Below are positions 9,150-50,255 of a stretch of 64,000 nucleotides of DNA, one piece after another; positions within the stretch are counted from its first letter, which is position 1, and every line of letters starts with the position of its first letter. Source of the DNA: an uncultured SAR86 cluster bacterium. GTDB lineage: Bacteria > Pseudomonadota > Gammaproteobacteria > Magnimaribacterales > AG-339-G14. Made by a program: the position numbers and the translations under genes. Where the stretch lies: NCBI GenBank assembly GCA_902614235.1, contig CACMKG010000001.1, positions 276,401 to 340,400 on the forward strand. The letters run 5' to 3'. The notes beneath the pieces are model-generated. The model did not search any database and was not told where the DNA came from. It worked only from the letters and a program-made list of their open reading frames with translations.

Positions 9150-10093
9150 TGAAATTATTATTGGCTATATTTTTTTTGATGTTAGCTTCATGTGCCTCAA
9201 ATCCTGAAAATAATAAATCCAACAAATATCTATCTGCGAAAGATAATGAAAATGCAGAAAAAATATTGGGACAAAATATATCTAAATCCATAGATTTATA
9301 TCCTATTCCTGATACTTTAGTTGCTGCTCCCCAAAAAGTTTATGAACTCCCTTTGCCAAAACAATTTTTTTCATCTGAATCAAATAATGAATTACGTCTT
9401 CACAAATTAGGAGAAATCAGATGGATTTATTTAAGTCTTGAGCCAAGTAAAGCTTGGCCTATGCTTCAAGAATATTTAAATCAAAGTAAAGAGTTAAACA
9501 TTGCCGATGCTAATCCAAAAACAGGAGAAATTTTTACCAAGGAAATTAACAGAGATAACAACATAACTAGATTTGTTTTTAAAATAGAAAGTGGATTGCA
9601 AAGAGCTAGTACTGAAATTTTCATTTCTTATGAAGCTTTAGATGGAAATATATGGAAAAAAAATTCTGATGATGAATATGTCAAAACTATTTCAACAAAA
9701 ATTTTAAATGGCCTCAGTGAATTGGGTTCAGTAACTGGAACCTCTCTAATAGCTTTAAATTTAAATTCAATTGATAAAACTGAAGTATTTATCGATGAAG
9801 ACGGATTTTCAAAAATAAGACTTATGGTTGGCTTTCCAAGAGCTTGGTCTGCTTTGCAAAGAACTCTGAGTATTGCCGAATTCAAGGTAAATGATTTTGA
9901 TAGAGAGAAAGGTATTTTCATTACAGAAATTAAATCTGAGGAAGGTTTTTTTGGGAGAGGGGATACAAAAGAAATTCAAATCTTTGTTGAAAAGATAGCC
10001 CAAAATGAGACAATTATTTCTGTTTCTATGGACGAACAAAATAAAGAATTCATTCAAGAAATTATTTCTCAAATTAATCAGGTACTATCTTAA
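9149..10093 (+). CDS. bamC: BamC-like outer-membrane assembly lipoprotein
   Basis: The 314-residue protein has a lipoprotein signal ending LASC (Cys15), then an extended N-terminal stretch, then two similar alpha/beta domains (about residues 85-190 and 205-310), as in BamC/NlpB. Sequence identity to E. coli BamC is not obvious by eye, so the call relies on architecture and on the dapA-bamC-purC order. It would be an accessory subunit of the BAM complex, with BamB encoded at 22.7 kb. Confidence 0.85.
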   Translation: MKLLLAIFFLMLASCASNPENNKSNKYLSAKDNENAEKILGQNISKSIDLYPIPDTLVAAPQKVYELPLPKQFFSSESNNELRLHKLGEIRWIYLSLEPSKAWPMLQEYLNQSKELNIADANPKTGEIFTKEINRDNNITRFVFKIESGLQRASTEIFISYEALDGNIWKKNSDDEYVKTISTKILNGLSELGSVTGTSLIALNLNSIDKTEVFIDEDGFSKIRLMVGFPRAWSALQRTLSIAEFKVNDFDREKGIFITEIKSEEGFFGRGDTKEIQIFVEKIAQNETIISVSMDEQNKEFIQEIISQINQVLS

Positions 10094-10094
10094 A

Positions 10095-10811
10095 ATGTTA
10101 GAAAGGAAAGAACTTTTAAAAACAGGCAAAGCAAAAGCTTTGTATACGACTTCTGATGCTTCAAAACTTATAATGGAGTATAGAGACGATACTTCAGCAT
10201 TCGATGGAAAAAAAATTGAGCAAATTGCTGGCAAAGGAACGGTAAATAACAGGTTCAATAGCTTTATTATGGAGCACCTTTCAAAAGAAGGAGTGGCAAA
10301 TCATCACTTAGAAGAGTCTGCCCCCAATGAAAGCATTGTAATGTCTCTTGAGATGTTTCCCATTGAGTGCGTCGTAAGAAACTTTGCAGCGGGAAGTATA
10401 TGCAAAAGATTAGGCCTTGAAGAAGCTTCTGTAATGGATCCTCCAATATTTGAATTCTTTTACAAAGACGACGACTTAGGAGACCCATTAATAAATGATT
10501 GCCACATAACTTCTTTTGGATGGGCTAATGAAGAGGATATAGAAGAAATGAAAAAATTGACTCTTCAAACTAATGATATTTTAGTCAAACTTTTCGATTT
10601 AGCAGATCTTATTCTTGTTGACTTTAAGTTAGAGTTTGGAAAATCCGAAAATAAAATTTATCTCGGTGATGAATTTACGCCAGACGGTTGCAGAGTTTGG
10701 GATAAAGAAACCAAAAAGAAGCTTGATAAAGATAGATTTAGATTAGGTTTAGGAGATGTTGTTGAGTCTTACCAAGAAATAGCTCACCGCTTGGGCGTCG
10801 ATTTAACTTAG
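10095..10811 (+). CDS. purC: SAICAR synthetase
   Basis: PurC joins CAIR and aspartate in purine biosynthesis. The protein is 238 residues from ATG 10095, with KTGKAKALY and DDTSAFDG near the N-terminus and PIECVVRNFAAGS in the middle. The frame stays open 30 codons further upstream inside bamC, but the family N-terminus (LERKELLKTGKAK) supports ATG 10095, one base after the bamC stop. Its last nine bases overlap the end of the convergent korB-like gene. Confidence 0.97.
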   Translation: MLERKELLKTGKAKALYTTSDASKLIMEYRDDTSAFDGKKIEQIAGKGTVNNRFNSFIMEHLSKEGVANHHLEESAPNESIVMSLEMFPIECVVRNFAAGSICKRLGLEEASVMDPPIFEFFYKDDDLGDPLINDCHITSFGWANEEDIEEMKKLTLQTNDILVKLFDLADLILVDFKLEFGKSENKIYLGDEFTPDGCRVWDKETKKKLDKDRFRLGLGDVVESYQEIAHRLGVDLT

Positions 10812-11857: not shown

Positions 11858-13702
11858 TTATCTTTTTTTAGCATTAATATGAGATTTATAATTTACTTCT
11901 CGCTCTGAAATCTTATTAACTATGTAGCTTGCTTGAATTGGATCTCCAGTGAAGTGAACTAAAGGCCTTAAAATTTCAGGTGAAATTCCTCCTTCTGCCA
12001 TAATTAATGTTCTCATTTGACTATCTCTATTTTGTTCAACCACATAAATACGGTCATGGTTTGCTATAAATTCCCATACATCTAAATTGAAAGGAAAAGA
12101 TCTGATCTGCATCAAATCAATATTAATTTCTTTTTCTTTCAGAATATCTTTTGCTTCATGAACTGCAGGAGAGGTACTTCCGTAAAAAATAACACCGCAG
12201 CTATCTTTCCCATTTATTTCTATAACTGGTTCTGGAACCAACTCTGAGGCTGTCCTAAATTTTTTCATGAGTCTGCTTAAAGTAGCAGCATTTACTTCTC
12301 CATCTTCGGTATATCTAGCATATTCATCATGAGAAGTTCCTCTTGTAAAAAAAGCTCCTTTTTCAGGGTGAGTTCCTGGATAAGTTCTATAGCAAATACC
12401 ATCATTATCTACATCCAAATATCTTCCAAAATTTTCAATTTCATCTAAATCATCTTTATTTAAAACTTTACCTCTGTTGTATTTATATTCATCGTCCCAT
12501 TTAAACTTATCGCAGACCCAATCATTCATACCCATGTCTAAATCGCTTACTACAAAAATTGGTGTTTGAAGTTGGTCTGCAAGATCAAATGCTTGAGCAG
12601 AAAAATCAAAACATTCTTTTGGGTCAGATGGAAACAGAACTACATGTTTTGTATCTCCATGAGATGCATACGCACAAGCTAATACGTCTGATTGTTGAGT
12701 CCTAGTCGGCATACCTGTAGAAGGGCCTCCTCTTTGAACATTAAATAAAACTAACGGTATTTCTGCAAAATAGGCTAAACCAAGGAATTCACTCATGAGA
12801 GAAATACCTGGCCCACTTGTTGCGGTGAAACCTCTTGCACCATTCCAGTTAGCTCCAATTGCCATTCCAATAGCAGCTAGCTCATCTTCTGCTTGCACAC
12901 TTGCAAAAAGATTTTTGCCAGTATTATTTTCTATCCTAAATTTTTTAGCATATTTTTCATAGCCCTCAGCTAGAGAAGTTGAAGGAGTAATGGGATACCA
13001 GGAACAGAAAGTGGCTCCTCCATAAACAGCACCAAGGCCAGCAGCCTCGTTTCCAGAAATTAGAATTTTATCTTCCAATTTGTCAGCTCTTGAAACAGTT
13101 ATTCCTAGAGGGTAAGGAAGGTTTTCCAACACATAATTTCTGCCTAAGTTCAAAGCTTTTAAATTTGGTTCTATTAAGGCAGGCTTTTTAATAAATTGTT
13201 CAGATATTATATTTTCTAGTACCTCATATTCAATATCTAATAGGACGGATAAAGCGCCTACATATGCAATATTTTTAAAAAGAGGTCTTTGTTTAGGATT
13301 TTTAAAGGCTTCGACACACAATTGTGTAAGAGGTATTTCAATAACAGTGATGTCTTTCCTATTAAAGTTTCTTTTCCAAGTGGAATCATATAGCAGGTAA
13401 CCACCAGGTAAAATTTCATCAACATCTTTAGAGTAACTTTGAGGATTCATTGCAACAGCAATATCAACTCCACCTCTGCTTCCTAAATAACCTTTTTCAT
13501 TTACTCTTACCTCAAACCAAGTAGGCAATCCTTGAATATTAGATGGAAATATATTTTTTGGACTAACTGGAATTCCCATTCTAAACATAGCTTTCGCGAA
13601 CATTTGATTAGCACTAGCAGAACCGGAACCATTTACATTTGCAAACTTTATAACAAAATCATTTGTAGACTGGATAGATTCTATTGATTTAACCTCATGC
13701 AT
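11858..13702 (-). CDS. korA: 2-oxoacid:acceptor oxidoreductase, fused gamma/alpha subunit
   Basis: At 614 residues this is a gamma domain (about 1-190, with GSGSASANQ and YLGSRGGVDIAV) fused to an alpha domain (from GNEAAGLGAVYGG and SWYPITPSTSLAEG onward). This is the architecture of oxygen-tolerant KorA (mycobacterial KorA is ~650 residues). The pyrimidine-domain segment TGPGISLMSEFLG and GGPSTGMPTRTQQ are clear. Its ATG overlaps the upstream gene's TAA (TAATG), so the three genes are one operon. Substrate is inferred as 2-oxoglutarate from the lack of sucAB beside sdh-suc. Confidence 0.85.
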   Translation of the reverse strand: MHEVKSIESIQSTNDFVIKFANVNGSGSASANQMFAKAMFRMGIPVSPKNIFPSNIQGLPTWFEVRVNEKGYLGSRGGVDIAVAMNPQSYSKDVDEILPGGYLLYDSTWKRNFNRKDITVIEIPLTQLCVEAFKNPKQRPLFKNIAYVGALSVLLDIEYEVLENIISEQFIKKPALIEPNLKALNLGRNYVLENLPYPLGITVSRADKLEDKILISGNEAAGLGAVYGGATFCSWYPITPSTSLAEGYEKYAKKFRIENNTGKNLFASVQAEDELAAIGMAIGANWNGARGFTATSGPGISLMSEFLGLAYFAEIPLVLFNVQRGGPSTGMPTRTQQSDVLACAYASHGDTKHVVLFPSDPKECFDFSAQAFDLADQLQTPIFVVSDLDMGMNDWVCDKFKWDDEYKYNRGKVLNKDDLDEIENFGRYLDVDNDGICYRTYPGTHPEKGAFFTRGTSHDEYARYTEDGEVNAATLSRLMKKFRTASELVPEPVIEINGKDSCGVIFYGSTSPAVHEAKDILKEKEINIDLMQIRSFPFNLDVWEFIANHDRIYVVEQNRDSQMRTLIMAEGGISPEILRPLVHFTGDPIQASYIVNKISEREVNYKSHINAKKR

Positions 13703-15714
13703 TATGCAACTTCCTTAGCTTTAATTTTATTTGTCAAGGTATGACTTTCTTTATAAGCATTTCTTTTTATATCCCAAGCTCCTGTAGGGCATCTTTCAGC
13801 GCAAAGACCACAATGGACGCACATGTCTTCATCTTTAACCATTCTTCTTCCAGTTTTAAGTTTTCCAGAGACGTATAAACTTTGATCTAGGTTTAAAGCA
13901 GGCACTCTTAGTTTATCTCTTACCTTTTCTTCCACGTCATTATCAACGAAATTTATACAATCCGTGGGGCAAATATCTACACAAGCATCGCATTCAATAC
14001 ACAAATCATCTTCAAAAACTGTTTGCATGTCACAGTTGAGACATCTTTGAGCTTCCTCGAGAGCCAATTCTTCATCAAAACCAAGTTCAACTTCAGTTTT
14101 TAGATTTTTTAATGATTTTGATAACTCTTCATGAGGTACAGAGATTCTTTTTTCTTGAGAAACATCATTATCATAAGACCATTCATGAATCCCCATTTTT
14201 TGACTAACTAAATTAGTAATTGGAGCTGGTCTTTCTTTTAAGCTAACACCAGAACAAAAGTTATCAATAGAAATAGCGGCTTGATGACCATGAGAAACAG
14301 CCCAAATTATATTTTCTGGTCCCCAAGCTGAATCACCACCAAAAAAAACTTTTGGGTGTGTAGATTGCATTGTTAATTTGTCTACTACCGGCATTTCCCA
14401 TTCACCAAATTCAATTCCAATATCTTTTTCAATCCAAGGAAAAGCATTTTCCTGACCTATTGCTAAGAGAACATCATCACACTCAATAGTTATCTCTTCG
14501 CCTGTAGATTGCATTTTCTTTCTTCCATCAACTTCAACCTGTTCCATTTTTTCAAACTTCATACCACAGAGTTTTCCCTTGTCGTCAAATAAAAATTCTT
14601 TTGGCGAAGTATTATCTAAAATAGGTATTCCTTCTTCCATCGTTTCTTCAATTTCCCACTCCGATGCTTTCATTTGAGAGAAGGGGCTTCGAACAATAAC
14701 CTTTACATCATTAGCTCCTAGTCTAAGGGCTGACCTACAACAATCCATTGCAGTATTTCCACCACCGATCACGATTACTTTTTTTCCAATCTTTTTGACG
14801 TGCTCAAAAGCAATGCTTGTTAACCAATCTATTCCTATGTGGATATTCTCCGAGGAGATCTCTCTTCCTTTAAGCTTTAAATCCTTTCCTTTTGGAGCTC
14901 CGGTTCCAATGAATACTGAGTCATATTCATCTATAACAGGTTTCAATTTTTCTATATAAGAGTTTAGTTTTAATTCAGCTCCCATATTTATAATCCTATA
15001 AATTTCTTCATCTAGGACATCAGCAGGAAGTCTAAAAGACGGAATATTTGTTCTCATTAAACCACCAGCTTTATGATCTTTTTCAAAAATAGTGCATTCG
15101 TATCCCAATGGTAAAAGATCTCTAGCTACAGTTAGAGAGGCTGGCCCAGCTCCAATGAGAGCTATCCTTTTTCCATTTTTAACTTTTGGCGACTGAGGAA
15201 TATATTTTTCTACATCATCTTTATAGTCGTAAGTAACTCTTTTGAGCCTACAAATTGCAACTGACTTTTCATGAGTTCGGCCTCTTCTGCAAGCTGGTTC
15301 GCAAGGCCTATCGCAAACTCTTCCAAGAATTCCTGGAAATACATTTGATTCCCAATTAAGCATATAGGCATCTGTATACTTTTTTTGAGCAATTAATCTA
15401 ATGTATTCTGGAACGTTTGTGTGAGCTGGACAGGCATATTGACAATCAACGACTTTATGAAAGTATTGAGGATTATCAATATTAGTTTTTTCCATAAATT
15501 TAGTTGAAGGTAATGGAACATATTTTTCAGTTTCATTAAATTTAGATTTTAATGATTCAACTATGTGATCTCTTACACTCCTTGCTTCATTTAAGTCAGA
15601 TTTTCCCGTAGTTTGTCTTAAGTCATAACCAAACTTGTCTCTTTGAGATTTAGGAACAGCGACTTTAACCCACCAAATATTGTTCCTTTTGTATAAATAT
15701 TTTTTATCTTCCAT
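13702..15714 (-). CDS. GltD-like Fe-S flavoprotein with ferredoxin domain and integrase-like N-terminus
   Basis: Of the 670 residues, about 85-500 resemble the small subunit of glutamate synthase and related NAD(P)H flavoproteins: the CxxxCP and CDRPCEPACRRG cluster ligands, a first dinucleotide site (ALIGAGPASL) and a second (VIVIGGGNTAMDC). The C-terminus has two 4Fe-4S motifs, CIECDACVDICP and CVHCGLCAERCP. It is first in the operon with korA and korB and probably shuttles their electrons to or from NAD(P). Residues ~5-60 (LYKRNNIWWVKVAVPK, then a Gly-Lys-Ser/Asp-Leu-x-Glu-Ala-Arg pattern) look like the N-terminal domain of phage-type tyrosine recombinases (DUF6538-like). That is unexpected. 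A start at Met74 (15495) would remove it, but has no ribosome site. Confidence 0.85.
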   Translation of the reverse strand: MEDKKYLYKRNNIWWVKVAVPKSQRDKFGYDLRQTTGKSDLNEARSVRDHIVESLKSKFNETEKYVPLPSTKFMEKTNIDNPQYFHKVVDCQYACPAHTNVPEYIRLIAQKKYTDAYMLNWESNVFPGILGRVCDRPCEPACRRGRTHEKSVAICRLKRVTYDYKDDVEKYIPQSPKVKNGKRIALIGAGPASLTVARDLLPLGYECTIFEKDHKAGGLMRTNIPSFRLPADVLDEEIYRIINMGAELKLNSYIEKLKPVIDEYDSVFIGTGAPKGKDLKLKGREISSENIHIGIDWLTSIAFEHVKKIGKKVIVIGGGNTAMDCCRSALRLGANDVKVIVRSPFSQMKASEWEIEETMEEGIPILDNTSPKEFLFDDKGKLCGMKFEKMEQVEVDGRKKMQSTGEEITIECDDVLLAIGQENAFPWIEKDIGIEFGEWEMPVVDKLTMQSTHPKVFFGGDSAWGPENIIWAVSHGHQAAISIDNFCSGVSLKERPAPITNLVSQKMGIHEWSYDNDVSQEKRISVPHEELSKSLKNLKTEVELGFDEELALEEAQRCLNCDMQTVFEDDLCIECDACVDICPTDCINFVDNDVEEKVRDKLRVPALNLDQSLYVSGKLKTGRRMVKDEDMCVHCGLCAERCPTGAWDIKRNAYKESHTLTNKIKAKEVA

Positions 15715-45426: not shown

Positions 45427-46986
45427 GTGAAAAGAGCTTTAACTTCTGAAAAAATAATAATTTTAGATTTTGGATCTCAATATACGCAACTAATAGCGAG
45501 AAGAATTAGAGAAGTAGGTGTTTATTCAGAAATTCTTCCACACAATGCATCTTTCAAAAAGTTAACAGCTCTTAACCCTGCAGGTTTGATCATGTCGGGG
45601 GGTCCAGAATCAGTAAATACTAAAAAAGCTTTAAAATTTGATCCCAAAATATTAGACAGTGATTTACCAGTCTTAGGTATCTGTTATGGTATGCAGTCTA
45701 TGGCTCAACACTTTCGAGGAAAGGTTTCGGCTTCGTCAAAAAGAGAATTTGGAAATGCAATTCTAAAAATTTATAAAGGGTCAATCTTTACAGGACTTTC
45801 TAATAAGACAAAAGAAGTGAATGTATGGATGAGTCACGGAGACAAAGTTTCTAAGCTTCCAAAAGGGTTTAAAAAAATAGCTTCGTCGAAAAATAGTCCA
45901 ATTGCAGCATTTGAAAATAAAAAATTAAAGAAATATGGTTTCCAATTTCATCCAGAGGTTACACACACAGATCAGGGTCAAAAAATTCTTAAAACCTTTG
46001 TAAAAGATATTTGCGGTTGCAAAGGCTCATGGAAACCTAAAAATATTGTCGAAGCTTTAATTGAAGATATAAAAATTAAAGTAGGTAATAAAAAGGTTTT
46101 ACTCGGAATTTCTGGTGGAGTAGATTCTTCAGTAGTTGCAGCATTACTTTCTAAAGCCATAGGAAAAAACTTGGAATGTATTTTTGTTGATAATGGTCTT
46201 CTAAGGAAAGGCGAAGCTGAACAGGTAAAAAAAGACTTAAAAAGAGGTTTAAAACTTAAAATTAATTTTTCTGATAGTGAACAACTTTTTCTAAAAAAAC
46301 TGAAAGGAGAAACAGACCCAGAAAAGAAAAGAAAAATAATAGGTAAAACTTTTGTTGATGTATTTTTAAAAGAAACTCAAAAGATCAAAAATATTTCTTT
46401 CCTTGCTCAAGGAACAATTTATCCAGATGTAATTGAATCTTCAGGTTTAAAAAATGGAAAAGCCCATGTAATAAAATCCCATCATAATGTTGGAGGATTA
46501 CCTGATTATTTAAAGCTTCCATTAGTGGAGCCTTTGAACTCTTTATTCAAAGATGAAGTAAGAAAAATAGGTAAGGAATTAGGACTGCCTGATTATTTAA
46601 TTAAAAGACATCCTTTCCCGGGACCAGGTTTAGCGGTGAGATCTATTGGAGAAATTAAAAAAGAAAAGCTAGAAATATTGAGAGCTGCTGATTATATTTT
46701 TATGGAAGAATTAAATAGCCATAATCTTTATGACAAAGTAAGCCAAGCTTTTGCAGTTTTCTTGCCTATAAAAAGTGTCGGTGTAGTTGGAGATGCAAGA
46801 AGGTATGAATATGTTATTGCTTTGAGAGCCGCAGAAACAACTGACTTCATGACTGCTAATGCAGCTAAACTTGATCATAAATTTTTGAATCTTGTATCGG
46901 ACAGAATCATTAATGAAATACCTCAAGTTTCAAGAGTTGTATACGATATTTCTAGTAAACCTCCAGCAACTATTGAGTGGGAATAG
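45427..46986 (+). CDS. guaA: GMP synthase (glutamine-hydrolysing)
   Basis: The 519-residue protein has an N-terminal class I amidotransferase domain (GICYGMQ with the nucleophile Cys, FHPEVTHT), an ATP-pyrophosphatase domain (ISGGVDSSVVAALL) and the C-terminal dimer domain ending PPATIEWE. The start is GTG 45427. The 3' end of guaA is a known integration site for genomic islands, and here the last 17 bases recur twice downstream. The gene itself stays intact because the repeat restores the stop. Confidence 0.97.
   Translation: MKRALTSEKIIILDFGSQYTQLIARRIREVGVYSEILPHNASFKKLTALNPAGLIMSGGPESVNTKKALKFDPKILDSDLPVLGICYGMQSMAQHFRGKVSASSKREFGNAILKIYKGSIFTGLSNKTKEVNVWMSHGDKVSKLPKGFKKIASSKNSPIAAFENKKLKKYGFQFHPEVTHTDQGQKILKTFVKDICGCKGSWKPKNIVEALIEDIKIKVGNKKVLLGISGGVDSSVVAALLSKAIGKNLECIFVDNGLLRKGEAEQVKKDLKRGLKLKINFSDSEQLFLKKLKGETDPEKKRKIIGKTFVDVFLKETQKIKNISFLAQGTIYPDVIESSGLKNGKAHVIKSHHNVGGLPDYLKLPLVEPLNSLFKDEVRKIGKELGLPDYLIKRHPFPGPGLAVRSIGEIKKEKLEILRAADYIFMEELNSHNLYDKVSQAFAVFLPIKSVGVVGDARRYEYVIALRAAETTDFMTANAAKLDHKFLNLVSDRIINEIPQVSRVVYDISSKPPATIEWE
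46970..46986 (+). repeat. att-like repeat copy 1 (native guaA end)
   Basis: CTATTGAGTGGGAATAG is the last coding part of guaA with its TAG stop. The following bases include AATAAAATCAATA, which also recurs after copy 2. This is the presumed attachment core. Confidence 0.65.
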
Positions 46987-47387: not shown

Positions 47388-47419
47388 ATTGAGTGGGAAT
47401 AAAGTGAATAAAATCAATA
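47388..47419 (+). repeat. att-like repeat copy 2
   Basis: ATTGAGTGGGAATA (47388-47401) repeats the guaA end exactly over 14 bases. After a two-base insertion, AATAAAATCAATA (47407-47419) continues the match to the bases that follow guaA. The extended similarity (about 28 of 30) makes chance unlikely. Confidence 0.65.
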
Positions 47420-47446: not shown

Positions 47447-47902
47447 ATGGATCCTCGGAAAAGTGATGTTGACGCAAAAGAAGCTTATTCAGAATATTTA
47501 AAATCCCAGGGTTATAAAGATATCAAAATAATTTCTTCTCCATCAGATATTTCAGCAACTAAAGACGGTGAAATTTTCTATTTCGAAATTAAGAAGACTA
47601 GTAGAGATGATGTTTATTTTGGTGCTGCTACATTAACTGAATGGGTTGCAGCTCTTAAAAACAAACAAAAATATTTTTTTGTTATTGCAAAATCTCTTGG
47701 TAATAATCAATGGGAATTTATTGAGCATACGCCAGATGAATTTATTAAATACTCAACCATCCCACCTTTCAAAATATTTTTTAGTGTTCCTTTAAATGAA
47801 AAAGAAAAGAAAAAGAAAAGAAAAAATATTAGTGCCGTTAGAGCATCAGAAGAAAGGATTAATAAGTTGGAAAATGTATACAGAGAATTGAGGGATGATT
47901 AA
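47447..47902 (+). CDS. PD-(D/E)XK nuclease-like protein, island cargo
   Basis: The 151-residue protein has an N-terminal domain with PSDISATKDGEIFYFEIKKT, which reads as the Asp...Glu-x-Lys core of restriction-endonuclease-like folds such as Mrr or DUF3883-type proteins. A very basic KEKKKKKRKN stretch and a short C-terminal helix follow. It could cut or bind DNA in defence or mobility, but this is inference from a short motif. It is the only gene between att-like copies 2 and 3. Confidence 0.7.
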   Translation: MDPRKSDVDAKEAYSEYLKSQGYKDIKIISSPSDISATKDGEIFYFEIKKTSRDDVYFGAATLTEWVAALKNKQKYFFVIAKSLGNNQWEFIEHTPDEFIKYSTIPPFKIFFSVPLNEKEKKKKRKNISAVRASEERINKLENVYRELRDD

Positions 47903-47975: not shown

Positions 47976-47992
47976 CTATTGAGTGGGAATAG
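47976..47992 (+). repeat. att-like repeat copy 3
   Basis: CTATTGAGTGGGAATAG is identical over 17 bases to the guaA terminus at 46970-46986, including the stop codon. Similarity ends there, except for a short AAATCA. Confidence 0.65.
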
Positions 47993-48155: not shown

Positions 48156-50255
48156 ATGAAAAAAAACGAATTAAAAATCGAACTTCGTTCTGAGGAGATG
48201 TTCCCTAATGGGTTTTCTTTAAAAGACTTTGAAAAGTTTTTTGAAGAAAATCAAAACACAATAAAAAATAATAGAAACATTATAAAAAAATTACGTTTCG
48301 GAGAAATAGAAACAGTAACAAAATCGTTTAAAAAGCCTAACTTCATGCAAGGCATGATCTATAAGTTTTTTAGGAAAACTAAAGCAAAAAGATCTTTCGA
48401 ACACTCTTTATTGTTAAATCAAAACGGCATAAAGACACCAGAACCGCTATGTTACATTGAAGTATTTAACCGTTTCAGACTCCTTCAAAGCTATTACATC
48501 TCCCGCCAAATTAATTATGATTTTACCCTTGAATTTGCGGCGTATAAGGAAGCTGAAGATTACAAAGATATTCTTAAGAGTTTTATTGACTTTACCTATA
48601 ACTTACATAAAAAAAATATTATGCATCTTGATTATGTTGTCGGAAATATATGCGTAAAAAAAATAGATAAAGGCTATGATTTTTTTTTAGTAGATCTTAA
48701 TAGGCTTTATAAAGGAGTTGTTACTTCTAAAACGGGTGTGAAAAATTTAAAGCGTATTAGCAAAGATCCAGAAATTATAAAAATTCTTGCTGAAGAATAT
48801 GCAAATAAATCATCGAATTCTTTTTCTGATTTCACCGACTATCTTATGAAATCAGTTAATTTAAATCTGCAAAAATCAAAGCTAAAAAGATTTGCAAAAA
48901 ATATTTTTGCAAGAGACTTTAGGATTCCGCGATCGTCCTATGCTTGGGATTATTATTCTAATCAACCTCATGTGCTGAATAATAAAAAACTAAAAAGAAA
49001 GATAGCTTTAATGTCTTGGTTTGCTAATTTAAAGATCATAATCTCTAGTGCGTATGCTTTATTTTTAGGTCCTTATTTCTATATTAAGAACAACAAACTC
49101 TCTGAAAATAAGATTGATAGTTTTGGGTTATGTGTAAACCTCGATAAACCAGTCAACTCTCAAAAATTAATTAGTAACGACGAACTAACTGAAATGATCG
49201 AAGAGCTGGCTGTTAATAATATCTTAGTAAGAATACCGCTAGCTGATTTTGATAATATTGAAAAATATTTTCGTTTTATAAAAAATCTTCAGGATAGGAA
49301 CGTCCTTGTTTGTATATTACAAGATAGAGAACACATTGAAGAAAAATACCTTACAAAACAAAGATTGGATTATATTTTTTCTAATCTTTCTAACGAAGTG
49401 AATACATTTCAGATAGGAAATTCAATTAATCGAAAAAAATGGGCGTTTGTATCAATAGACGAATATTTTTCATTTTTTAAAATAGCTTATGATCTTAAAA
49501 ATGATAAGTTTCCAAATATTAAATTACTTGGAAGTAATATTATTGATTTTGATCTTCCTTTTTTTGCTCGATCAATTTTTCACTTCAAATCTATCTTTTA
49601 TGACGGCATTGCGACACAGCTTTATGTAGATAGACGTGGCGGTCCAGAAGAAAAACAGTTAGGTTTTGATACAGTGTCAAAGATTAAGGCTTATGCTGCA
49701 CTTGCTAGTGCTAGCAGAAATACAGAAAATGAACTTTACATAACAGAGGTTAATTGGCCACTCCAGGAAATGAGTGAATGGTCTCCTTCTGCAGAATATT
49801 TGATTGAAGAGTCGCTTCAAGCAAGATATATGATTCGTTATTATCTTTTGATGTTAGCTTCTGGGAAAGTAAAAAAATGTTTCTGGCATCAATTGGTTGC
49901 TCCAGGTTATGGATTGGTTAATAACTTAGATGGAAAAATTAAAAAAAGAGATGCCTATTTTTGTTTCAAGCATTTGATTTCGATATTCTCTGACAGCAAG
50001 ACAAAAAAATTTATTCAAGAAAAAAACCTATATTGTTTAATTGTTGAAAAAGAGGAAACGATTATAGAAGCTGTCTGGTCAAATGATGGAAATGCTACCT
50101 TTAAAAGTAAACCTTGCCAGCAAATTTTTGATATCCGAGGAAAAGCGATAGAGACAAGTAATTCACCAACGATTGAGATTTCTGGTGAGGTTATCTATAT
50201 AGAAAAACAAAAAAATAATTATGAAGAAATTAATTTAAAATCTATCAATGAATAA
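48156..50255 (+). CDS. InaA/Kdo-kinase-like domain fused to a glycoside-hydrolase-like TIM barrel
   Basis: The 699-residue protein appears to be a fusion. Residues ~30-230 resemble lipopolysaccharide kinases (InaA/WaaP): catalytic HLDYVVGN (Asp159, Asn164) and LVDLNR (Asp180). Residues ~320-600 resemble a clan-A glycoside hydrolase (GH39-like): strand-4 motif FQIGNSINRKKW and strand-7 motif ITEVNWPL (Glu531). The acid/base Glu expected after IGN is Ser423, so hydrolysis is doubtful. A small beta domain ends the chain. No signal peptide is seen. It starts just beyond the att array and its end overlaps an esterase gene by eight bases. Confidence 0.75.
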   Translation: MKKNELKIELRSEEMFPNGFSLKDFEKFFEENQNTIKNNRNIIKKLRFGEIETVTKSFKKPNFMQGMIYKFFRKTKAKRSFEHSLLLNQNGIKTPEPLCYIEVFNRFRLLQSYYISRQINYDFTLEFAAYKEAEDYKDILKSFIDFTYNLHKKNIMHLDYVVGNICVKKIDKGYDFFLVDLNRLYKGVVTSKTGVKNLKRISKDPEIIKILAEEYANKSSNSFSDFTDYLMKSVNLNLQKSKLKRFAKNIFARDFRIPRSSYAWDYYSNQPHVLNNKKLKRKIALMSWFANLKIIISSAYALFLGPYFYIKNNKLSENKIDSFGLCVNLDKPVNSQKLISNDELTEMIEELAVNNILVRIPLADFDNIEKYFRFIKNLQDRNVLVCILQDREHIEEKYLTKQRLDYIFSNLSNEVNTFQIGNSINRKKWAFVSIDEYFSFFKIAYDLKNDKFPNIKLLGSNIIDFDLPFFARSIFHFKSIFYDGIATQLYVDRRGGPEEKQLGFDTVSKIKAYAALASASRNTENELYITEVNWPLQEMSEWSPSAEYLIEESLQARYMIRYYLLMLASGKVKKCFWHQLVAPGYGLVNNLDGKIKKRDAYFCFKHLISIFSDSKTKKFIQEKNLYCLIVEKEETIIEAVWSNDGNATFKSKPCQQIFDIRGKAIETSNSPTIEISGEVIYIEKQKNNYEEINLKSINE

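What the first reader, a model, noticed from the sequence alone, without database searches (positions are those of the whole stretch)
48156..50255. Kinase/glycoside-hydrolase fusion with the acid/base Glu replaced by Ser
An InaA/Kdo-type kinase domain (HLDYVVGN, LVDLNR) is fused to a GH39-like TIM barrel. The strand-4 motif reads IGNS (Ser423) where clan-A enzymes have Asn-Glu, while the strand-7 nucleophile region (ITEVNW, Glu531) is kept. This could be a glycan-binding pseudo-hydrolase presenting a sugar to the kinase, or a transglycosidase. It is coupled to an esterase and a CPBP protease, right behind the island array.
Basis: partly seen in the sequence, partly recalled or inferred. Interest (0 to 1): 0.65.

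Follow-up and report, generated by a model that had tools for sequence, protein, structure and literature searches.

The report
Sugar kinase fused to crippled glycosidase
A marine bacterium (SAR86) carries one protein that joins a lipopolysaccharide-type sugar kinase to a sugar-cutting-enzyme fold that has lost its acid catalyst; the same pairing occurs in other bacteria in the opposite order and as two separate genes in one lipopolysaccharide operon, which suggests the dead or half-dead enzyme now handles the sugar for the kinase.

Summary
P0001 (48156-50255, 699 aa) is an InaA/Kdo-type kinase (K56, E82, HLD157-159, N164, DLN180-182 all kept) followed by a GH39-derived (beta/alpha)8 domain. 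Profile-profile alignment to true GH39 proteins (hhalign 98.2%) puts Ser423 on the acid/base Glu and Glu531 on the nucleophile. Across 82 relatives the acid/base position is never Glu: Ser 6/6 in SAR86, Ala 49/49 in stand-alone proteins, Thr 27/27 in a second fusion type. The nucleophile Glu is kept in the first two groups and absent from all 27 of the third. No Pfam or NCBIfam family covers this half. The kinase link is not chance: SAR86 has kinase-GH, another gammaproteobacterial family has GH-kinase (an independent, reversed fusion), and one genome of that family has the nearest stand-alone relatives of both halves in one LPS-core operon. The SAR86 genome has the Kdo transferase but no heptosyltransferase hit, so Kdo or another core or surface sugar is the likelier substrate. 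Best reading: a surface-glycan kinase with a non-hydrolytic glycan-handling barrel. Activity, substrate and membrane topology are untested; a single-Glu transglycosidase is not excluded.

The parts
48156..50255 (+). whole gene: InaA/Kdo-type kinase fused to GH39-derived barrel, 699 aa
   Evidence: orthologs
48258..48830 (+). kinase domain, residues about 35-225 (PF06293-like)
48321..48323 (+). Lys56, ATP-binding lysine (VTKSF)
   Evidence: invariant in A2; assigned by analogy with WaaP K51 (PMC6147952)
48624..48647 (+). HLDYVVGN, catalytic loop with Asp159 and Asn164
48693..48701 (+). DLN180-182, metal-binding DFG equivalent
49005..49085 (+). hydrophobic segment with conserved Pro306 between kinase and barrel (residues 284-310); membrane-associated or packing helix, undecided
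   Evidence: hydropathy; alignment
49113..49988 (+). GH39-derived (beta/alpha)8 domain, residues about 320-611
   Evidence: secondary structure; hhalign; Foldseek
49422..49424 (+). Ser423 at the acid/base position
49428..49442 (+). NRKKW (425-429): N425, R426, W429 invariant in 82 of 82 members
49545..49553 (+). DFD (464-466), DFE in the other 76 members; family-specific acidic pair after strand 5, candidate relocated acid
49632..49637 (+). Arg493-Arg494 after strand 6; R493 invariant in 82 of 82
49746..49748 (+). Glu531, nucleophile position; kept in 55 of 55 SAR86 and stand-alone members, lost in 27 of 27 reversed fusions
49989..50252 (+). C-terminal extension, residues 612-699, absent from most stand-alone relatives

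Best explanation
The gene encodes a surface-glycan kinase. The N-terminal half is an active WaaP/KdkA/InaA-type kinase that moves phosphate from ATP to a sugar of the LPS inner core or a related surface glycan; in SAR86 most likely Kdo. The C-terminal half is a GH39 barrel that no longer hydrolyses, because its general acid/base is gone. It keeps a sugar pocket lined with new conserved basic residues (R426, K428, R493, K509) and binds or orients the anionic glycan so that the kinase can act on it. Shown: the two domains, the lost acid/base, its family-wide absence, two fusions in opposite order, the LPS operon linkage. Inferred: kinase activity, substrate, pocket ligand, and that the barrel serves the kinase.
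For: Ser423 aligns with the catalytic acid of true GH39 proteins. Acid/base position S/A/T in 82 of 82, never E, D or Q. All kinase catalytic residues invariant. Reversed GH-kinase fusion in most of the 37 matching genomes among 57 of family f6. Split kinase and barrel in one waaL/GT2/GT9 operon. Reversed fusions L035 and L036 beside a GT9 heptosyltransferase gene and hldE, with gmhA, a tandem WaaP-type kinase and GT4 nearby. The barrel tree groups SAR86 with the split-operon barrels (97/86), apart from the monophyletic reversed fusions; the kinase tree also separates the two fusion types (SH-aLRT 90-99). One SAR86 copy is followed by surface-glycan genes (L038). SAR86 has KdtA but no GT9 hit, and the fusion is the only PF06293 protein seen in its family.
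Against: No measured activity or ligand. Most stand-alone barrels (48 of 49) have no such kinase within the roughly 8 kb searched (less where contigs end), so the barrel has a life of its own. Glu531 is strictly kept in SAR86 and stand-alone members, which suggests retained chemistry. A hydrophobic segment between the halves (19-residue hydropathy up to 2.1 in SAR86 and 2.8 in L061) could put the barrel in the periplasm, away from the kinase. In the window itself the neighbours are not LPS genes.
Confidence: 0.5

Rival explanations
1. Single-Glu transglycosidase or glycosyl transfer enzyme: in the SAR86 and stand-alone branch Glu531 still acts as nucleophile on a donor whose leaving group needs no acid, or the acid role has moved to the DFD/DFE pair after strand 5. 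The kinase is a second, consecutive step of the same glycan pathway.
For: Glu531 and Asn533 kept in 55 of 55; D464 in 82 of 82 and D/E466 in all. Stand-alone barrels without a kinase nearby must do something by themselves. From established knowledge, plant myrosinases (GH1) work without the acid/base Glu.
Against: The reversed fusions keep the DFE residues but have lost the nucleophile in 27 of 27, so those residues are not kept for hydrolysis there, and kinase fusion persists without any GH chemistry.
Confidence: 0.25
2. Two halves on opposite sides of the inner membrane: kinase in the cytoplasm, barrel in the periplasm, joined by a transmembrane helix at residues 284-310; the barrel senses or binds finished glycan and signals to the kinase or only anchors it.
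For: Hydrophobic segment before the barrel, strong in L061/L062 (2.5-2.8) and L038 (2.07), with Lys-rich N-terminal flank.
Against: Weak in the window copy (1.43) and in L011 (no segment above 1.02); the reversed fusions checked have no comparable segment before the kinase, so there both halves must share the cytoplasm.
Confidence: 0.15
3. Ordinary active GH39 enzyme misread by alignment: the true acid/base Glu is nearby.
For: Low-confidence structure models.
Against: No Glu or Asp in columns 420-432 in any of 82 members; register fixed by hhalign at both catalytic sites.
Confidence: 0.04

Closest known systems
Glycoside hydrolase family 39 (PF01229), e.g. P. aeruginosa PslG (key residues E165 and E276; PMC9075953)
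   Same: Detectable homology over about 300 columns; nucleophile motif TE.NWP kept in the SAR86 and stand-alone branch; PslG is the best barrel in the PDB profile search, though only at E = 1.8; both occur with cell-surface polysaccharide genes
   Different: Acid/base Glu replaced by Ser, Ala or Thr in all members; new invariant NR..W, DF and Arg; fused or linked to a kinase; no Pfam GH39 hit
WaaP / KdkA / InaA LPS core kinases (PF06293; WaaP structure PMC6147952)
   Same: Lys, Glu, HxD, Asn and DxN catalytic set; nearest curated NCBIfam model is Kdo kinase (below its cut-off)
   Different: Known members are single- or tandem-kinase proteins; no GH-type partner found described in the paper search
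Alpha/beta-Klotho (tandem glycosidase-like domains used as co-receptor; PMC10284700)
   Same: Conceptual precedent: clan-A glycosidase fold reused for binding
   Different: Animal receptor, GH1 fold, no kinase fused; analogy only
O-antigen-ligase-like/GH39 fusions in genus g287 (L049-L051)
   Same: GH39 barrel joined to an LPS/polysaccharide assembly protein
   Different: Both catalytic Glu present (YEVWNE, YFTEFSW)

Membership tests
GH39 (PF01229) | Homology to GH39 sequences over the barrel | tested here: met
   hhalign 98.2% probability, 307 columns; reference proteins score PF01229 above its cut-off
GH39 (PF01229) | Score above the Pfam gathering cut-off | tested here: not met
   no PF01229 hit for P0001 or the relatives scanned
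GH39 (PF01229) | Acid/base Glu at the end of strand 4 | tested here: not met
   S/A/T in 82 of 82
GH39 (PF01229) | Nucleophile Glu at the end of strand 7 | tested here: met
   Glu531 in SAR86 6/6 and stand-alone 49/49; absent from reversed fusions 0/27
GH39 (PF01229) | (beta/alpha)8 fold | tested here: inconclusive
   eight strand-helix units predicted, Foldseek hits mostly TIM barrels incl. GH5, GH10, GH53 and a beta-1,3-xylanase, but pLDDT only 40-49
GH39 (PF01229) | Glycosidase activity | not testable with these tools
   needs purified protein
Kdo/WaaP/InaA kinases (PF06293) | Score above the Pfam cut-off | tested here: inconclusive
   window copy 20.4 vs 21.3 bits; five SAR86 orthologs over the cut-off, up to 37 bits
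Kdo/WaaP/InaA kinases (PF06293) | Catalytic Lys, alpha-C Glu, H.D, Asn, D.N | tested here: met
   K56, E82, H157-D159, N164, D180-N182 invariant
Kdo kinase KdkA (NF002475) | Score above the equivalog cut-off (142 bits) | tested here: not met
   21.2 bits, 25.7 in L013
Kdo kinase KdkA (NF002475) | Phosphorylates Kdo on lipid IVA | not testable with these tools
   host has KdtA and no GT9 hit, which only makes Kdo plausible

The most novel reading that the evidence does not exclude
The barrel of the SAR86 and stand-alone branch is a GH39 fold converted into a transglycosidase that uses one Glu and an activated donor to add or move a sugar in LPS-core assembly, while a sister branch lost the last catalytic Glu and became a pure binding module, both repeatedly paired with LPS kinases.
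Probability: 0.15. Interest if true: 0.82.

Novelty: new variant of a known kind. Interest (0 to 1): 0.62.

Why it matters
It defines an unnamed gammaproteobacterial family in which a glycosidase fold lost its acid catalyst at or near its origin, yet stayed under strong selection and was joined to LPS-type sugar kinases twice independently and in opposite orders. That is unusually strong genomic evidence that a crippled glycosidase and a sugar kinase work together. It makes a bacterial glycosidase pseudoenzyme in envelope assembly directly testable and offers a candidate Kdo-modifying kinase for SAR86, an abundant ocean lineage.

Tried and rejected
AlphaFold with the five permitted SAR86 sequences was poor (pLDDT 40 full length, 49 for the barrel); deeper alignments contained sequences the tool does not accept and were not sent. 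Sequence search of the PDB found no barrel for the single sequence, and PslG only at E = 1.8 with the profile. Viral contigs gave no relatives; plasmids gave only kinase-half relatives from Bacteroidota. Paper searches for an InaA-glycosidase fusion, a pseudo-GH39 and myrosinase-type enzymes gave nothing relevant. A functional link to the esterase and CPBP genes was considered and set aside because it is not conserved. Chance fusion was rejected: conserved in seven SAR86 genomes of two genera, reversed elsewhere. A single fusion event was rejected from domain order, barrel tree and kinase tree, with the caution that long branches make deep placements unsure.

Full report
What is there. The window lies in a SAR86 genome (1.09 Mb, 13 contigs, 90% complete). 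One frame, 48156-50255 (+), encodes 699 aa. Residues about 35-225 are an InaA/Kdo-type kinase: PF06293 at 20.4 bits, just under the 21.3 cut-off, nearest NCBIfam model Kdo kinase. Five orthologs pass the Pfam cut-off, up to 37 bits. Lys56, Glu82, HLD157-159, Asn164 and DLN180-182 are invariant and match the catalytic set of WaaP (K51, E78, HRD, DFG equivalent; PMC6147952). Nothing in the sequence suggests a dead kinase.

The second half is GH39-derived. It has no Pfam or NCBIfam hit. A 12-sequence profile (A3) finds, in a phylum-wide sample, proteins with true GH39 domains (PF01229 above its cut-off). Profile-profile comparison gives 98.2% probability over 307 columns and fixes the register: FQIGNSINRKKW against WEIWNEPNAPAFW and YITEVNWPL against IWASELGFP. 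So Ser423 stands where the acid/base Glu belongs and Glu531 is the nucleophile position. AlphaFold models are weak (pLDDT 40 and 49), but the full-length model shows eight strand-helix units over 322-611 with strand 4 ending at 422 and strand 7 at 532. Foldseek with the barrel model returns mainly TIM barrels, many of them clan-A glycosidases, at E about 1e-3; this is supportive only.

Family-wide survey. Relatives were collected from the class, the phylum, the order of SAR86 and of G314, and family f6, and 82 were aligned. They fall into SAR86 kinase-barrel fusions (6), stand-alone or barrel-only proteins (49) and barrel-kinase fusions (27). At column 423 they have Ser 6/6, Ala 49/49 and Thr 27/27; no Glu, Asp or Gln, and no acidic residue anywhere from 420 to 432. 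Glu531 is kept in 55/55 of the first two groups and absent from 27/27 of the third. Ten positions are invariant in all: N425, R426, W429, D464, F465, R493, K509, W534, Y562, G586. N425 has a counterpart in the NEPN motif of one reference GH39 (L052), while the reference GH39s do not show R426 or the DF pair in that alignment. The pattern is a stable change of function, not decay. The invariant basic residues near the pocket suggest an anionic sugar; that is inference from sequence.

Why the kinase matters. The barrel meets an InaA-type kinase in three ways. In SAR86 the order is kinase then barrel. In most of the matching f6 genomes, and in G131 and G820, it is barrel then kinase. In G436 the two are separate genes, on one strand, in an LPS-core operon: Wzy_C/waaL (13176-14390), InaA kinase (12464-13201, E 5e-32 to the SAR86 kinase), GT2, GT9, barrel (9426-10475); a second GT9 (waaF-like), an lpxL-like gene and gmhA flank it (lpxL and gmhA named by eye). 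The barrel tree puts SAR86 next to the G436/G445 barrels (97/86) and the reversed fusions in one separate clade (100/98). The kinase tree keeps the reversed-fusion kinases (98) apart from a group of SAR86, G436 and a Bacteroidota InaA kinase (90). Two independent fusions are the simplest reading; some branches are long, so deep placements are cautious.

Pathway. Reversed fusions L035 and L036 lie near a heptosyltransferase (GT9), hldE, gmhA, a tandem WaaP-type kinase and a GT4 gene (gmhA by eye). L032 follows two Wzy_C O-antigen-ligase-like genes. In SAR86 genome G036 the fusion is followed by a methyltransferase, a PglD-type acyltransferase and an FkbM methyltransferase, with a GT2, an aminotransferase and RgpF nearby (L038). 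G000 itself has KdtA but no GT9 hit (control positive in E. coli), and no other PF06293 protein was seen in family f1 besides the fusion. Kdo, or another core or surface sugar, is therefore a better guess than heptose in SAR86. In the window the direct neighbours are guaA, two small cargo genes, an esterase and a CPBP protein; they do not support a pathway, and the esterase overlap holds in one genus only.

Limits. Most stand-alone barrels (order of G314, f113) have no such kinase within the roughly 8 kb fetched, less where contigs end, and those looked at sit beside housekeeping genes such as rpiA or trmB (named by eye). They must have a role of their own, and with Glu531 kept that role could be catalytic. 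A hydrophobic segment with a conserved Pro precedes the barrel in SAR86 and stand-alone members (variable hydropathy, up to 2.8); if it spans the membrane, the two halves of the SAR86 protein would be on opposite sides. The reversed fusions argue against that for the family, since there the kinase follows the barrel without such a segment in those checked.

Verdict. No paper describing the fusion or the barrel family was found in the library searched, which does not cover most subscription journals.

Noticed in passing
window 46972-46986, 47388-47402, 47978-47992; L011 3468, 5025, 6303, 7220: The 3' end of guaA (ATTGAGTGGGAATA) is repeated downstream of guaA between small cargo genes, three copies in the window and four in L011, as expected of an island hotspot with site-specific insertions; L010 has one copy and no cargo.
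   Followed up: partly
window 47447-47902: 151-aa cargo protein with sub-threshold NOV_C, Hjc and Mrr_cat matches, possibly a nuclease-fold gene in the guaA hotspot.
   Followed up: no
L049-L051 (genus g287): 944-aa frames whose N-terminal part looks like an O-antigen ligase or polymerase membrane protein and whose C-terminal part is a GH39 domain with both catalytic Glu; another fusion of GH39 with an envelope-glycan protein.
   Followed up: partly
L063 7824-9821 and 9841-12117: A sulfatase-fold membrane-type protein (LtaS/EptA-like by eye) lies about 20 bases before a reversed barrel-kinase fusion.
   Followed up: no
G451:C3 20478-21766; G456:C340: Barrel genes interrupted by a stop in two f6 genomes, possible recent decay or assembly error.
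   Followed up: no
L154-L156 (SAR86-order family f3), L157-L161 (f2): Other families of the order carry a separate PF06293 kinase of about 249 aa or a tandem kinase of about 500 aa instead of the fusion.
   Followed up: no
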